Source: Gloeomargarita lithophora Alchichica-D10 (GTDB lineage Bacteria > Cyanobacteriota > Cyanobacteriia > Gloeomargaritales > Gloeomargaritaceae). From it: DNA of 64,000 bases. The first letter of the stretch is position 1. Each line of letters opens with the position of its first letter. The notes beneath the pieces are model-generated. The model searched no databases and was not told the DNA's origin. It worked only from the letters and a program-made list of their open reading frames with translations. Positions 5,636 to 11,106 of this stretch are shown here, piece after piece. Location of the stretch: the NCBI RefSeq assembly GCF_001870225.1, contig NZ_CP017675.1, positions 1,111,756-1,175,755 on the forward strand. The letters are read 5' to 3'. The translations under genes were made by a program, and so were the position numbers.

Positions 5636-5774
5636 CCCGGTTATGCTCCTAAGGTTTTCATTACGATTTTAGACGGACAGACCTGGTAATCCGTTCACCG
5701 CCTTGCCAAAAAGCTTAGGCCAAGGACACCCTCACTGGAATTGTGAACAGAGATTCTGGAGAACCAAGGGCGTT

Positions 5775-5877
5775 GTTCCTAATTAGCCTAAAACTATCAT
5801 ACCCCATCTGCACGATTCGGTTTGGGAGCGGCAACCCCAGCGGGCGTAACAAATTTTTGCCATTATCGGGAGATGGG
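5775..5877 (+). repeat. Left copy of cassette-flanking direct repeat; fragment of terminase-like gene
   Basis: This stretch is an imperfect copy of 7928-8037, the promoter-proximal region and first ~30 codons of the terminase-like gene. Shared blocks include ATCTGCACGA, TGGGAGCGGCAACCCC, CCAGCGGGC, TTTTGCC and TATCGGGAGATGGG. A 9-bp gap and an in-frame TAA show this copy is dead. The similarity also covers about 20 bp upstream of the start codon, and stops abruptly after AGATGGG. The two copies bracket the DUF488/dual-OB cassette. Confidence 0.8.
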
Positions 5878-5932
5878 CAAAACTTGAGTAAGCTGATATA
5901 TCAGAAGAAGTAATGTTTTTTCGATACGGGTC

Positions 5933-6574
5933 ATGCAACCCCTATTTACCATTGGTCATTCCCAGCATTCTTTGGAGAGTTTTATTGTCTTATTGCAACA
6001 ACATAATGTGACTGCTCTAGCCGATGTGCGTTCCATGCCCTATAGTCGGCGTTTACCCCAATTTAATCGCCCAGTTTTAGAAAAAAATTTACCCCAAGCT
6101 GAAATTCGTTATGCGTTTTTGGGCAAAGAATTAGGTGCCCGTCCTGAGGATTCTCACTGCTATGTAGATGGCAAAGCCTTATACGAAAATATAGCGGTCA
6201 CATCAGGGTTTTCCCAGGGAATTAACCGGATTCTCAAGGGTGTGCGAAGCCATCGCATTGCGCTCATGTGTGCAGAGAAAGACCCCGTAACCTGCCATCG
6301 CGCAATTTTAGTTTGTCAACATTTACTACCATTTAACTTAGAGATAGGACATATTCTCACCGATGGCTCCTTGGAATACCACGAAGATTTGGAAGACCGT
6401 CTGTTAAAACTGCATGATTTACAAGACCCAGAACCCAGCAATCAGCTTTCATTATTCAGCGAACCTACCGGACAAAAATCCAGCCGAGAAGAACGGTTAA
6501 AAGAGGCTTATCATAGACAAGGCTTGAAAATTGCCTACGTTGAAAAAGAACATAGTGTGACTAACCATGATTAA
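5933..6574 (+). CDS. DUF488 family protein (first of two)
   Basis: 213 residues. It shows the DUF488 features: TIGHSQHSLESFIVLL at the N-terminus, LADVRSMPYSRRLPQFNR (about 33-50), and the conserved Cys/His motif MCAEKDPVTCHRAIL (about 117-131). The biochemical role of DUF488 is not settled. The fold and conserved C-x(7)-CHR motif suggest a catalytic or nucleic-acid-linked role, often beside defence or stress genes. The C-terminal 60 residues form a charged tail. It overlaps the next DUF488 gene by 8 bp and its codons are AT-richer than the core genes around it, suggesting acquisition. It is the first gene after the left direct repeat. Confidence 0.85.
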   Translation: MQPLFTIGHSQHSLESFIVLLQQHNVTALADVRSMPYSRRLPQFNRPVLEKNLPQAEIRYAFLGKELGARPEDSHCYVDGKALYENIAVTSGFSQGINRILKGVRSHRIALMCAEKDPVTCHRAILVCQHLLPFNLEIGHILTDGSLEYHEDLEDRLLKLHDLQDPEPSNQLSLFSEPTGQKSSREERLKEAYHRQGLKIAYVEKEHSVTNHD

Positions 6575-7004
6575 ACTATTTACGATTGGATTCACCCGTA
6601 AATCCGCCGCTCAATTCTTTGAGGGATTAAAAAAGGTTGGGGTGAAAATGCTGATTGATACTCGGTTAAATAATACCTCCCAATTATCGGGATTTGCCAA
6701 ACAGTCTGACTTACGGTATTTTTTGGATAAAATCACTCAAATTAGCTATGAGCATTGTTTGCCCTTGGCACCAACCCAAGATATTTTAGATAACTATAAA
6801 AAGAAAAAAATTGCTTGGGATGAATATGAAAATTCTTACTTAGAACTCATTCAAAAACGACAGGTAGAATCATTATTAAGTCCAGAACAATTAGACCATG
6901 CTTGTTTCTTATGTAGTGAAGATAAGCCCCATTACTGCCATCGTCGTTTAGCGGCAGAATATCTTCAGTCTCGGTTAAATAATCTCCAAGTCATTCATCT
7001 CTAG
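6567..7004 (+). CDS. DUF488 family protein (second, short)
   Basis: 145 residues, a compact DUF488 domain: FTIGFTRKSAAQFFEGL (about 4-20), MLIDTRLNNTSQLSGFAK (about 28-45) and FLCSEDKPHYCHRRLAAEYL (about 111-130), the same Cys...CHR motif as its upstream neighbour. The ATG overlaps the end of the first DUF488 gene by 8 bp, so translation is probably coupled. It is followed 7 bp later by the dual-OB gene. The fixed order DUF488-DUF488-dual-OB suggests the three proteins act together. Function is not known to me. Confidence 0.85.
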   Translation: MIKLFTIGFTRKSAAQFFEGLKKVGVKMLIDTRLNNTSQLSGFAKQSDLRYFLDKITQISYEHCLPLAPTQDILDNYKKKKIAWDEYENSYLELIQKRQVESLLSPEQLDHACFLCSEDKPHYCHRRLAAEYLQSRLNNLQVIHL

Positions 7005-7011
7005 GATTCTT

Positions 7012-7917
7012 ATGCGGGTTATATGTCTGGCAAATTCCTATAAACATCAAGCCCGATGTATCGCTGGAGTTGCCATTGATTCGGGTGACTGGATACGGCC
7101 TGTATCAGGATTGGAAGATGGCCGGATTCCTGTTGATGATACCCAGATACCCGCCAGACAAATCAGCCTACTATAGCAATATGACACGAGTTACGAACGG
7201 AAATTCCGCAGAACCAAGGGCGGGGGATGCCCCCCTGCGACCGCTGTTCTAAATTCAAATAAGATTGCTATAGATATAGTAGATATTCCCCTAACCGATC
7301 AACGAGGGTCAGGGCATGAACCAGAAAATCGGCTTTACAAAGACCAAGCCTGGAAGATTTTAGGAAAAGCAGAAGTCGTACAGATTCTCTGTTACTGTGA
7401 ACGAGAATTAATTTATCCAGAATTTGCCCGTAAGGTGCCTTTTTCCTATTTAAGTAAAATCAAACCAGCTCGGACGCTACAACTCATTGAAGTTAAACAA
7501 TTACGCTGGGAACGCAACCAATATGGTAAGTGTAAAGCCTTTATTTTAGATGATATTTATAACTGTGCAGACCTAGGTTTCAGTATTACTGACCCGGCAA
7601 TTACTGCGAAAATAAACCCAGACCAAGAGGTGAGTAGTCATTGTTTATTATGTATGAGTTTAGCCCAACCTTGGCAAGGGGGAAATGACCCGGAGCCTAT
7701 GTGTTATCGCTTGGTGGCTGGGGTAATTGAACTCTTACCAGAAATCACCCTCATTGGGCAAGAAATGCAACGGGTGGGTTGGACTATCACCCAAGGTCGT
7801 CATTACTTGCAAAACCAATTTTCCAAACAATCTCGCTATCAATTAATGGCTCGGAAGCCCAAGCATTTGTGCAATTTCTCCAAGGTTTACCCACCGCTGA
7901 GTAGAAGTACCGTTTGA
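7012..7917 (+). pseudogene. Dual OB-domain protein gene interrupted by family A element
   Basis: The N-terminal part (VICLANSYKHQARCIAG, DWIRPVSGLEDGRIP) and, after the inserted element, VDIPLTDQRGSGHEPENRLY match the dual OB domain family, predicted nucleic-acid- or nucleotide-binding proteins found with DUF488. A 97-bp element at 7174-7270 plus a duplicated TA splits codon 54. Removing it gives an uninterrupted frame (ISL-DIVDIP) to the TGA at 7915-7917, about 268 residues. The insertion adds 99 bp, so the frame is kept, and the only stop is the TAG formed at the left junction (7174-7176). The downstream half remains open and could be expressed by readthrough or internal initiation. The C-terminal half has two CxxC-like cysteines (HCLLC) of unclear role. 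Confidence 0.82.
7174..7270 (-). mobile_element. Family A MITE (97 bp) inside dual-OB gene
   Basis: Ends TAGCAAT and ATTGCTA, flanked by TA on both sides (7172-7173 and 7271-7272). The sequence is the exact reverse complement of the copies at 33465-33561 and 62995-63091. It has no coding capacity and a GC-rich central hairpin (GGGGGATGCCCCCC type). TA duplication and the termini point to IS630/Tc1-type mobilisation. Confidence 0.93.
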
Positions 7918-7927
7918 GGGGGGAAAC

Positions 7928-8037
7928 TTTCTAGTTAGACTAGAAGCATGATCCCCTATCTGCACGAACCGGCCTGGGAGCGGCAACCCCGGGAACCCCA
8001 GCGGGCATACCAGAGCTTTTGCCGGTATCGGGAGATG
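7928..8037 (+). repeat. Right copy of cassette-flanking direct repeat
   Basis: This is the intact copy of the sequence whose degenerate twin lies at 5775-5877. It includes the leader with the small inverted repeat TCTAGTTAGACTAGA and the first ~30 codons of the terminase-like gene. The 2.1 kb between the two copies holds the AT-rich DUF488/dual-OB genes. Confidence 0.78.
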
Positions 8038-8538
8038 GGTGCCCAGCGGCAATTGGAACCCTTGAGCCAAGATTATCCTTTAGAGCAATTGCACAAATGG
8101 CTGAGCCGCTGGCAATGGGTGGAGCGCGCCGCCGCCTGGGATCAATACCTGGCAATGTTATGGCAACAGCATTACCACCACCAACAACAGCACCAGCAGG
8201 ATATCTGGCGGCAACGCCAGGAACAATGGCGAGAAACCGAATGGGAATACGTGCGGGCACTGCAACGCAAGGTGGATGCCATTTTGAGCTTACCTGTGAC
8301 CCGGCAACGCACAGTCAGAGATGGGAAAACCGTGATTATTGAACCCATGAATTGGAGTCTGGGGGATGTTGCCCAGCTTGTCCAATTGATTAGCGAATTG
8401 GGACGCAAGGCTTTGGCGAAACCGGAACCTGCCTTGCACCCTCTGCTCACCCTGTTGGCACAGCGGATGTCCCCTAGTGCTTACGGGGAGTTGGTGCGGG
8501 CATTGCAAGAATTTAGTCAGGAGGGGTTGGATTCCTGA
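7948..8538 (+). CDS. Phage terminase small subunit-like protein
   Basis: 196 residues. The N-terminus, with AWERQPREPQRAYQSFCRYR, a spacer and LSRWQWVERAAAWDQYL, resembles the HTH-containing start of terminase small-subunit-like proteins, where a short helix-turn-helix recognises phage DNA. The middle is Gln/His-rich and likely helical (QHYHHQQQHQQ, about 72-85). The C-terminal half has no motif I recognise. No large terminase, portal or capsid gene lies nearby, so this is a solitary domesticated or stranded gene rather than a prophage. Its 5' end is duplicated at 5775-5877. Function uncertain. Confidence 0.6.
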   Translation: MIPYLHEPAWERQPREPQRAYQSFCRYREMGAQRQLEPLSQDYPLEQLHKWLSRWQWVERAAAWDQYLAMLWQQHYHHQQQHQQDIWRQRQEQWRETEWEYVRALQRKVDAILSLPVTRQRTVRDGKTVIIEPMNWSLGDVAQLVQLISELGRKALAKPEPALHPLLTLLAQRMSPSAYGELVRALQEFSQEGLDS

Positions 8539-8596
8539 AGCGCAAAGGGGTATAGCATTGTTATGCCTACTGTCCAACCTCTAAAGGGAGATGCCT

Positions 8597-8914
8597 ATGA
8601 AAACGCTCTACTTTGCGCTGTTTGTCTCTGCCCTGGTTTGCGCTTGCAACGCCACCCCGCCCGCAGCGGCTGACCGTAACGTGGCCTTCTCCTGCACAAA
8701 CGGCGAGAGTGTTTCTGTGCGCTTCTCACCCGCCAACAGCACCGCTGTCTTGATCCGCAACGGCGAAAACATTGAGCTTCAGCAACAACCCAGCGGCTCT
8801 GGTTTCATTTATAGCAACGGCTCCAGTACCATTCGTGGCAAAGGCGATGACCTAACCATCGAGATTGGCCGCATGATGCCCATCCAATGTAAGGCGAAGG
8901 AGACGCAGGCATAA
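8597..8914 (+). CDS. MliC-family lipoprotein (C-type lysozyme inhibitor-like)
   Basis: 105 residues from ATG 8597. That start is favoured over 8591 because GGGAG lies just upstream of 8591 and would be too close. The N-terminus MKTLYFALFVSALVCACN is a signal sequence with a lipobox-like VCAC. The mature part AFSCTNGESVSVRF...AVLIRNGENIELQQQPSGSG...IRGKGDDLTIEIG...IQCKA has the two cysteines and beta-strand pattern of the MliC/COG3895 family, which inhibits c-type lysozyme in proteobacteria. In a cyanobacterium the partner is unknown. No clear co-transcribed neighbour. Confidence 0.72.
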   Translation: MKTLYFALFVSALVCACNATPPAAADRNVAFSCTNGESVSVRFSPANSTAVLIRNGENIELQQQPSGSGFIYSNGSSTIRGKGDDLTIEIGRMMPIQCKAKETQA

Positions 8915-9468
8915 TAAGCCGACTTTGTACTGAGAACTATGCCGCCGGGAGATGCCCCAACAGACCTAGGATATTTCGTTCCATGACCTGATGCGTTTCT
9001 GGGCTGGGACAATTACTCGACCACTTCTGGGGCAAAGGATTTGGACATATTTCCACAAACGATTGGTTTGAGATTCGGCGACTTCAGACCTGTAGCAATT
9101 CCACCCATTAGCCTGCGTGGTGATAGCGCAGTGTGTCCGCAGGACATAGCCATTTGGCGAACAAATGTTCAGAAGAACCAAGGGCGGGCGGTGCCCCGGC
9201 GACCTATTTTTAGAGGTGTCCTTAAGTTAATTAAAAGGCAAGCCTATGGCTTTTTAGGTTTTGACAACTTCCGGGCAAGAACCTTAGCTGGATTCTCTGA
9301 TTAAATAAACTTATCACCTTAAGTCCAGGAGAGCCAAGAAACTTGCGATTTCACCGGTTAATTTACTCCCGTATTTATCCAGACATCACCCCAATTATCT
9401 GCTTCTTAAACAGAATTTTTTGAGGAAGCTACATTCACATTAGCACCATCCCTGGGATTGGGTCAAAT
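8915..9468. other. Repeat-rich intergenic region
   Basis: No convincing gene. At 9087-9227 lies a chimeric repeat: its left part (TAGCAATTCCACCCATTAGC...TAGCCATTTGGCGAACA) matches the reverse complement of the diverged family A copy at 63845-63965. The core AACCAAGGGCGGGCGG follows, and its right end TATTTTTAGAGGTGTCC is that of family C. At 9307-9336 TTATCACC...CCAGGAGAGCC resembles one end of the small element at 47028-47148. An ORF at 8966-9181 (minus) has no family support. Confidence 0.6.
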
Positions 9469-11106
9469 TCAAATACGACACACTAAATCCCCCGCCCGTT
9501 GGGTAAACCGCAGATTTTCCCGATAATCTACCGGACAATCAATCACGGTGGGCACCGATTGTTCCAAAGCTGTTTTCAAAGTAGGAATAAACTCCTCAGT
9601 TTTACTAATTCGATAACCTTTTAAGCCCATACTTTCGGCAAGTTTGACAAAATCGGGATTGCCAAATTCAATATAACGACTATGGCCGTAATGTTGGTGT
9701 TGTTTCCATTCAATCAAGCCATAACCCCCATCATTAAAAATAATCGTTACAAAAGGAGTTTTTGCCCGTAAAGCAGTTTCCAATTCCTGACAGTTCATCA
9801 TAAATCCCCCATCCCCGGTGACCGCCACTACCCGGCGGTTGGGAGCCACCAATTTGGCCGCAATCCCCCCCGGTACCGCAATCCCCATCGCCGCAAAGCC
9901 ATTGGAAATCAAACAGGTATTGGGTTGCAGACAATGATAATGCCGAGCCATCCACATCTTATGGGCGCCCACATCACTGATCACAATGTCATTCTCACCC
10001 ATCACTTGCCGCAAATCATAAATCAGTTTTTGGGGCTTGATGGGAAATTCATTGTCCAGGGCATAGCGTTGATAATCTGCCCGAATTTCCTCCCGAAATT
10101 GCAGGGCATAGGGTGCCGGTTTGCCTTGGCGATGGGTACGTTTGAGAATTTCGTTTAAGGAATCAGAAATATCCCCCACCACTTCCACGATGGGAATATA
10201 ACTGCTGTCAATTTCAGCAGAATTTTGGCCGATGTGAATAATCGGCATCGTGCCCTGGGGATTCCATTTTTTGGGAGAATATTCCACCAAATCATAGCCA
10301 ATAGCAATCATTAAATCCGTATGATCCAGGGCGCAATTAATATGATCCCGCAGTTGTAAACCCACACTCCACAAGGCCAGGGGATGGGTGTAGGGAATCA
10401 CCCCTTTACCCATAAAACTATTGGCAACAGGAATGTTTAAGGCTTCGGCAAATTCGGTGAGGGCTTGATGGGCATGATTTCTAATCGCCCCATTGCCAAC
10501 TAAAATTAAAGGATTTTGAGCATTTTGGATCGCTTGGGCGGCCAGTTCAATACTTTTGAAAGAAGCATAAACTTTCTCCTGGCGGTCCTGTTTGAGGGCA
10601 TGACCAGCGGCGGGCATGGCGGCAATATTTTCGGGCAAATCAATATGCACTGCCCCCGGTTTTTCCTGCTGGGCAATTTTGAAGGCTTTGCGGACAATTT
10701 CAGGTGTAATACTGGGGCGCACAATCTGGGCATTCCACTTGGTAACCGGCGCAAACATCGCCACCAAATCCAGGTATTGATGGGATTCAATGTGCATCCG
10801 ATCCGTGCCCACTTGCCCGGTAATGGCGACCAAGGGTGCCCCATCCAAATTGGCATCCGCCACCCCGGTCATCAGGTTGGTGGCTCCCGGCCCCAAGGTA
10901 GATAAACACACCCCCGCCCGCCCGGTCAAACGACCATAGACATCCGCCATAAATGCCGCCCCTTGTTCATGGCGGGTAGTGATAAATTGAATTGATGATT
11001 GGCTAATGGCTTCTAATAGTTCTAAATTTTCTTCTCCGGGCAAGCCAAAAATGTATTCTACCCCCTCATTTTCTAAACAATGAACCAACAATTCGGCTGT
11101 GTTCAT
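9469..11106 (-). CDS. ilvB: Acetolactate synthase large subunit-type TPP enzyme
   Basis: 545 residues with the three TPP-enzyme domains. The N-terminus has VEYIFGLPGEENLELLEAI with the catalytic Glu that activates thiamine diphosphate (about 47-51 region TTRHEQGAAFMADVYGRLTG follows), a central Rossmann-like FAD/nucleotide domain, and the C-terminal TPP-Mg motif GDGGFMMNCQELETAL...NDGGYGLIEW (about 428-470). It condenses pyruvate to 2-acetolactate for branched-chain amino acids. It is shorter than classical IlvB and close to the stand-alone cyanobacterial paralogue, so a catabolic AlsS-like or related TPP role is possible. No small subunit gene is adjacent. Confidence 0.82.
   Translation of the reverse strand: MNTAELLVHCLENEGVEYIFGLPGEENLELLEAISQSSIQFITTRHEQGAAFMADVYGRLTGRAGVCLSTLGPGATNLMTGVADANLDGAPLVAITGQVGTDRMHIESHQYLDLVAMFAPVTKWNAQIVRPSITPEIVRKAFKIAQQEKPGAVHIDLPENIAAMPAAGHALKQDRQEKVYASFKSIELAAQAIQNAQNPLILVGNGAIRNHAHQALTEFAEALNIPVANSFMGKGVIPYTHPLALWSVGLQLRDHINCALDHTDLMIAIGYDLVEYSPKKWNPQGTMPIIHIGQNSAEIDSSYIPIVEVVGDISDSLNEILKRTHRQGKPAPYALQFREEIRADYQRYALDNEFPIKPQKLIYDLRQVMGENDIVISDVGAHKMWMARHYHCLQPNTCLISNGFAAMGIAVPGGIAAKLVAPNRRVVAVTGDGGFMMNCQELETALRAKTPFVTIIFNDGGYGLIEWKQHQHYGHSRYIEFGNPDFVKLAESMGLKGYRISKTEEFIPTLKTALEQSVPTVIDCPVDYRENLRFTQRAGDLVCRI

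What the first reader, a model, noticed from the sequence alone, without database searches (positions are those of the whole stretch)
5775..8037. DUF488-DUF488-dual-OB cassette bracketed by direct repeats of a neighbour gene
The 2.1-kb AT-richer block holding two DUF488 genes and a dual-OB gene lies between an intact copy (7928-8037) and a decayed copy (5775-5877) of the leader plus first ~30 codons of the terminase-like gene. Homology ends abruptly at the same AGATGGG. This suggests the block arrived as a unit (or by recombination) at the start of that gene and duplicated it. Two DUF488 proteins with CHR-type Cys motifs, overlapping by 8 bp, plus a predicted nucleic-acid-binding dual-OB protein, look like a functional module, possibly a conflict or stress system.
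Basis: partly seen in the sequence, partly recalled or inferred. Interest (0 to 1): 0.78.

Follow-up and report, generated by a model that had tools for sequence, protein, structure and literature searches.

The report
Relocated, broken copy of PDC-M45 cassette
Three side-by-side genes that bacteria of many phyla keep together, and that a database already lists as a possible anti-phage system, sit here in a cyanobacterium where one of the three has been broken by a small jumping element; the repeats around them are scars of local duplication and gene relocation, not of the genes arriving by insertion.

Summary
The repeats are real: window 5776-5877 is a decayed copy of 7928-8039, the 5' end of the terminase-like gene. 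The insertion model fails. Two congeneric genomes carry DUF488-DUF488-DuOB directly upstream of that gene with no repeat, and two others lost the cassette but keep the DuOB 3' end. A second partial copy (5'-end copy + spacer + DUF488 codons 1-45, same junction) lies 1.7 Mb away at the ancestral site. So the repeat is a lineage-specific partial duplication, and the block was later relocated whole. The 'dual-OB gene' 7435-7917 is only the 3' part of a DuOB gene (start 7012) split by a ~103-bp MITE and also frameshifted; the genome has no other DuOB. Both DUF488 genes remain intact and under purifying selection. The trio is a genuine module: order DUF488a-DUF488b-DuOB in cyanobacteria and DuOB-DUF488a-DUF488b in other phyla. 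It matches PADLOC's candidate system PDC-M45. On prophage contigs and small plasmids DUF488a is replaced by mSLOG-DUF4326. Likely function, inferred: DuOB brings cysteine enzymes to altered nucleic acid or nucleotides in conflict or repair.

The parts
5738..5772 (+). remnant of the genome's MITE family next to the left edge of the relocated block
   Evidence: 80% to 7188-7222 over 35 nt; MITE match
5775..5877 (+). decayed copy of the leader and first ~31 codons of the terminase-like gene
   Evidence: shares derived bases and junction with L024 5243-5356
5878..5932 (+). native 5' spacer of DUF488a, fused to the decayed copy
   Evidence: 89% to L024 spacer; weakly alignable to the HcyBio-DUF488a spacer of G004/G002
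5933..6574 (+). DUF488a (PDC-M45B-like), 213 aa, intact
   Evidence: Pfam 4e-24; PDC-M45B 1.6e-74; dN/dS ~0.08-0.10
6567..7004 (+). DUF488b (PDC-M45C-like; DUF488-N3a over cut-off), 145 aa, intact
   Evidence: Pfam 1e-19 and 1.7e-8; PDC-M45C 2.2e-64; dN/dS ~0.08-0.11
7012..7170 (+). 5' fragment of the DuOB gene (DuOB positions 1-48)
   Evidence: Pfam DuOB 1.3e-13; stop at 7174
7171..7274 (+). ~103-bp MITE inserted in DuOB, 10-bp inverted ends
   Evidence: 55 matches in the genome, about 24 of them 94-100% identical
7275..7904 (+). 3' part of the DuOB gene, with a 1-bp deletion near 7850; ancestral stop 7902-7904
   Evidence: Pfam 1.1e-10; comparison with G004/G002 proteins
7928..8039 (+). intact leader and 5' end of the terminase-like gene (parent of the repeat)
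7948..8538 (+). terminase-small-subunit-like gene, genus-restricted neighbour, not part of the module
   Evidence: phrog_6299 4e-13; found only in the genus among 39 genomes
8925..9076 (-). remnant of the DUF760-like gene that follows the terminase-like gene in relatives; marks the right part of the relocated block
9336..9675 (-). right flank: end of the acetolactate-synthase-like gene and its downstream, duplicated (96%) at G000:C1 ~85.2-85.6 kb

Best explanation
This is a decaying copy of the PDC-M45-type module DUF488a-DUF488b-DuOB, present in the genus before these species diverged. History (shown by comparison): the ancestral order was HcyBio-like gene, DUF488a, DUF488b, DuOB, terminase-like gene, DUF760. 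In this lineage a copy of the DuOB 3' end plus the first 31 codons of the terminase-like gene came to lie between the HcyBio gene and DUF488a, by partial tandem duplication plus deletion or by one templated insertion at a GAGTA(A/G)AA microhomology. The block was then relocated to its present site between hlyD and the acetolactate-synthase-like gene, leaving a stub at the old site. A MITE and a 1-bp deletion broke DuOB. Mechanism (inferred): in the intact module DuOB, with two OB folds, binds nucleic acid and holds two related cysteine enzymes of the DUF488 fold, which remove or transfer a group on a modified or damaged nucleic acid or nucleotide. It serves in conflict with mobile elements, or in repair. 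Here the two enzymes persist under purifying selection without their OB partner.
For: Congeners with cassette but no repeat, and congeners with cassette loss. Same junction and shared derived bases at L024. Block flanks and remnants. MITE copies and frameshift. Conserved order abD (37) or Dab (31) in 80 genome loci, with short overlaps between neighbours. PDC-M45A/B/C matches. Invariant C-x7-CHR in both DUF488s. DUF488a and DUF488b are homologous (hhalign 98%). DuOB model (pLDDT 96) weakly resembles BrxL, p202 HIN2, SSB and POT1 OB domains. Defence genes near some loci (Hma, Dpd, Mza, PD-T4-6, MADS). Stand-alone DUF488b beside uvrA/uvrB in formaldehyde islands. PMC9503650 places the swap partner DUF4326 in the rhodanese-phosphatase superfamily.
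Against: No activity is known. Fold matches are weak (E about 1e-3 for DuOB, 0.01 or worse for DUF488b). The defence-neighbour tally has no control set. No uvrA/uvrB within about 6 kb of the triads. Purifying selection is measured over the whole branch and may predate the MITE. The order of the duplication and relocation steps is not uniquely fixed.
Confidence: 0.62

Rival explanations
1. One reading: the cassette inserted at the start of the terminase-like gene and duplicated the target (a long target duplication or recombination).
For: Direct repeat flanks the cassette with abrupt ends; cassette AT-richer than flanks.
Against: Three genes without the repeat in G002 and G004; DuOB 3' remnants in G003 and G005; the same junction at a second site with only DUF488a codons 1-45. 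No integrase, transposase or terminal inverted repeats at the edges.
Confidence: 0.04
2. The module is an anti-phage defence system (PDC-M45) in the strict sense: DuOB senses or binds phage nucleic acid and the DUF488 enzymes are the effectors.
For: PADLOC-DB candidate; patchy distribution, DuOB in 30 of 195 cyanobacterial genomes; broken copies in several genomes; defence neighbours; carriage on prophage contigs and plasmids.
Against: Candidate status rests on gene neighbourhood; no experiment found; no control for the neighbour tally.
Confidence: 0.35
3. The module is a nucleic-acid repair or adduct-removal system rather than immunity; DUF488b acts on bulky or aldehyde-type DNA damage, with DuOB or UvrA/UvrB as the damage-binding partner.
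For: DUF488b relatives sharing about 57-63% identity with a triad DUF488b sit next to uvrA or uvrB in formaldehyde-detoxification islands on three plasmids; OB folds bind single strands.
Against: Stand-alone DUF488b only; no uvr genes at triad loci; plasmid islands may reflect one lineage.
Confidence: 0.25
4. The DUF488 genes here are already functionless leftovers and the locus is only genomic debris.
For: DuOB broken by MITE and frameshift; cassette lost in G003 and G005, partly lost in G001 C8.
Against: Both DUF488 ORFs intact with dN/dS 0.08-0.11, like the neighbouring genes.
Confidence: 0.25

Closest known systems
PDC-M45 (PADLOC-DB 2.0.0 phage-defence candidate; A = DuOB, B and C = DUF488 proteins)
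   Same: All three families, adjacent, same strand, overlapping or closely spaced genes; strong model matches.
   Different: In this genome component A is split by a MITE and frameshifted; a partial duplication precedes component B; the locus was relocated.
DuOB-DUF488b-mSLOG/DUF4326 operons on prophage contigs and plasmids
   Same: DuOB and DUF488b are homologous and adjacent; the third protein again carries a C-x(n)-CH motif in a rhodanese-phosphatase-type domain (PMC9503650).
   Different: Order D-b-X; DUF488a replaced by mSLOG-DUF4326; not matched by PADLOC models for X.
Stand-alone DUF488 beside uvrA/uvrB in plasmid formaldehyde islands
   Same: DUF488b-type protein with the C-x7-CHRR and NN.SQL motifs.
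   Different: No DuOB, no DUF488a; partners are excision-repair genes.

Membership tests
PDC-M45 | component B (DUF488a) matches PDC-M45B | tested here: met
   1.6e-74 over 3-209
PDC-M45 | component C (DUF488b) matches PDC-M45C | tested here: met
   2.2e-64 over 3-144
PDC-M45 | intact component A (DuOB) | tested here: not met
   Split by MITE, in-frame stop, frameshift; no other DuOB in the genome. Orthologue in G004 matches PDC-M45A 2.4e-29
PDC-M45 | genes adjacent in one operon-like run | tested here: met
   5933-7904 on + strand, 8-bp overlap between a and b
PDC-M45 | anti-phage activity | not testable with these tools
   needs phage assays; no report found
Pfam DUF488 (PF04343) | score over the curated cut-off | tested here: met
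   85.9 and 71.4 bits vs 22.2
Rhodanese-phosphatase superfamily | catalytic Cys at the end of a strand, loop, Arg at start of a helix in a Rossmann-like fold | tested here: inconclusive
   Model: strand 112-116 ends at C116, helix from 125, CHR at 124-126; PTP matches not significant
Pfam DuOB (PF22557) | two OB folds, score over cut-off | tested here: met
   Both fragments over cut-off (51.9 and 42.3 vs 27 bits); model of a relative consistent with OB folds
Transposon-like or target-duplicating insertion | empty site in relatives without repeat, target duplication flanking the insert | tested here: not met
   Relatives without cassette keep DuOB remnants; relatives with cassette lack the repeat

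The most novel reading that the evidence does not exclude
The DuOB/DUF488 modules are a widespread nucleic-acid adduct-processing system. An OB-fold reader works with a conserved cysteine enzyme (DUF488b) and an exchangeable second cysteine enzyme (DUF488a, or mSLOG-DUF4326), and the same DUF488b core has been paired with UvrA/UvrB against aldehyde damage.
Probability: 0.22. Interest if true: 0.72.

Novelty: new member of a known kind. Interest (0 to 1): 0.42.

Why it matters
The repeat story closes as ordinary genome decay and rearrangement, which removes a false lead about cassette insertion. The module itself is worth testing: it is conserved across many phyla, has no known activity, and its two natural variants (mSLOG-DUF4326 in place of DUF488a; stand-alone DUF488b with UvrA/UvrB) point to a shared substrate that simple assays could find. 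A cyanobacterium that keeps both DUF488 enzymes without the OB partner is a natural test of whether the enzymes act alone.

Tried and rejected
Insertion model: rejected by congeners. Relatives in the PDB by sequence for DUF488b and DuOB: none. Fold search: only weak OB and PTP-like matches. Structured RNA near the locus: none. Close DNA relatives on plasmids: none. DUF488b in isolated phages: none for either the window or a prophage version, so phage carriage rests on IMG/VR contigs. Literature on the system: the paper from which the DuOB/DUF488-N3 Pfam names probably come (by my recollection, Burroughs and Aravind 2020) is not held; PDC-M45 is not named in the library. UvrA/UvrB near triads: none. 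A claim that the terminase-like gene belongs to the module was considered and dropped: it is genus-restricted, GC 56%, and persists where the cassette is lost.

Full report
WHAT WAS CHECKED. The repeat is present as described. 5776-5838 and 7928-7990 are 79% identical, and further in-register pieces reach the shared end GGGAGATGGG. It is far beyond chance (blastn E about 3e-14). Two DUF488 ORFs overlap by 8 bp and score well over Pfam's cut-off. The block is 42% G+C against 53% for the window, and the orthologous genes of G002 and G004 have the same low G+C, so the AT-richness is old.

THE DUAL-OB GENE IS BROKEN. DuOB starts at 7012. Its frame meets a TAG at 7174 inside a ~103-bp element with inverted ends CTATAGCAAT/ATTGCTATAG, of which the genome holds 55 matches, about 24 of them 94-100% identical. 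Compared with G004 and G002 the end is also out of frame through a 1-bp deletion near 7850; the ancestral stop is 7902-7904. A family search finds no other DuOB in the genome.

HISTORY OF THE REPEAT. In G004, and in G001 where contigs allow, the order is HcyBio-like gene, DUF488a, DUF488b, DuOB, terminase-like gene, DUF760. G002 has the same DUF488a-to-DUF760 run at another place. Neither G002 nor G004 has a second copy of the terminase-like 5' end. G003 and G005 lack the cassette but retain DuOB's last bases (TGAGTAGAAGTACC) upstream of the terminase-like gene. In the window's genome the ancestral site (L024, C1:2814000-2824500) still has the HcyBio gene, then DuOB's last bases fused to its stop codon at GAGTA(A/G)AA, then the terminase-like 5' end up to the same GGGAGATGGG, then the DUF488a spacer and DUF488a codons 1-45, then unrelated sequence. 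The decayed window copy and the L024 copy share the junction and derived bases such as ATTCGGTTTGG. They therefore descend from one event, before the block moved. 'HcyBio-like' is my own naming of the conserved 385-aa neighbour from its sequence; it was not checked against a family library.

RELOCATION. The block now lies between hlyD and an acetolactate-synthase-like gene, which are far apart in G002 and G004. A DUF760 remnant with stops follows the terminase-like gene at 9076-8925, so the block moved as a whole. The right flank is itself a breakpoint: 9336-9675 is 96% identical to a stub at C1 ~85 kb that keeps the old downstream neighbourhood. How the block moved is not shown. The names DUF760 and acetolactate synthase are likewise mine from the sequence.

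IS IT A MODULE? Yes. Among 195 cyanobacterial genomes DuOB occurs in 30, and nearly all full-length DuOB genes have DUF488b, usually with DUF488a, beside them. Of 80 loci from a scan of 85,000 species, 37 read DUF488a-DUF488b-DuOB (cyanobacteria) and 31 DuOB-DUF488a-DUF488b (other phyla), with most exceptions being broken or truncated variants of these. The scan kept only the best 80 of more than 570 relatives, so the full range is wider. PADLOC-DB names the three proteins PDC-M45A, B and C; that 'PDC' means phage-defence candidate is my own knowledge.

VARIANTS. In 22 of 38 IMG/VR loci the order is DuOB-DUF488b-X, X being mSLOG plus DUF4326; four of eight plasmid loci examined are the same. 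[quoted passage not shown] Its CxCKPxxCHGD end resembles the DUF488 end CSExKPxxCHRR, a short match of moderate support (hhalign 45%). DUF488a and DUF488b are clearly homologous (98%). So the second enzyme slot seems exchangeable; this is inference. On three plasmids a stand-alone DUF488b sits beside uvrA or uvrB in formaldehyde-detoxification islands.

MECHANISM. Shown: invariant C-x7-CHR in both enzymes; a confident DuOB model with weak similarity to OB domains of nucleic-acid binders; in the DUF488b model the first cysteine ends a strand and CHR begins a helix, the layout expected of the superfamily. Inferred: DuOB binds nucleic acid and the cysteine enzymes act on it or on a nucleotide derived from it. 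Defence genes occur near several loci, without a control. Immunity and repair both remain open.

STATE OF THIS COPY. DUF488a and DUF488b have dN/dS 0.08-0.11 against G002 and G004, like the terminase-like gene (0.08) and HcyBio (0.07). They were kept under constraint for most of the branch; whether they still work since the MITE came in is unknown.

Noticed in passing
L154, L156, L162-L171 and others (IMG/VR contigs); plasmid loci L234, L237, L238, L239: DuOB-DUF488b-(mSLOG-DUF4326) operons: the second DUF488 is replaced by a different cysteine-motif protein. Some viral copies lie near terminase large subunit genes.
   Followed up: partly
L232 (pKp55, IncC), L233 (Comamonas), L236 (Aeromonas p1): Stand-alone DUF488b next to uvrA or uvrB inside formaldehyde-detoxification islands with frmR, fghA or formaldehyde dehydrogenases.
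   Followed up: partly
window 7171-7274, and 55 matches genome-wide: A small inverted-end element with many near-identical copies, also fragments at 5745-5772, 9168-9197 and in L024; copies in relatives are more diverged.
   Followed up: partly
window 9336-9675 and G000:C1 ~85215-85554 (L240): A 340-bp duplication (96%) at the breakpoint next to the acetolactate-synthase-like gene; breakpoint-edge duplications seem to recur in this genome.
   Followed up: partly
window 8591-9076: An MliC-domain gene (8591-8914) sits where the 3' half of the DUF760-like gene should be; the rest of DUF760 is a remnant.
   Followed up: partly
L050 and L057 (same-class cyanobacteria): DuOB in a 560-580 aa open frame that continues into what looks like a WD40-type beta-propeller repeat region (by eye).
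   Followed up: no
DuOB C-terminus of G004 and L044: The last ~46 residues match the end of the slr1353 family model (6e-18 for L044), below that family's cut-off.
   Followed up: no
G039, G178, G092, G035, G078: DuOB is split, stopped or truncated in several other cyanobacteria too, suggesting frequent loss of this component.
   Followed up: no
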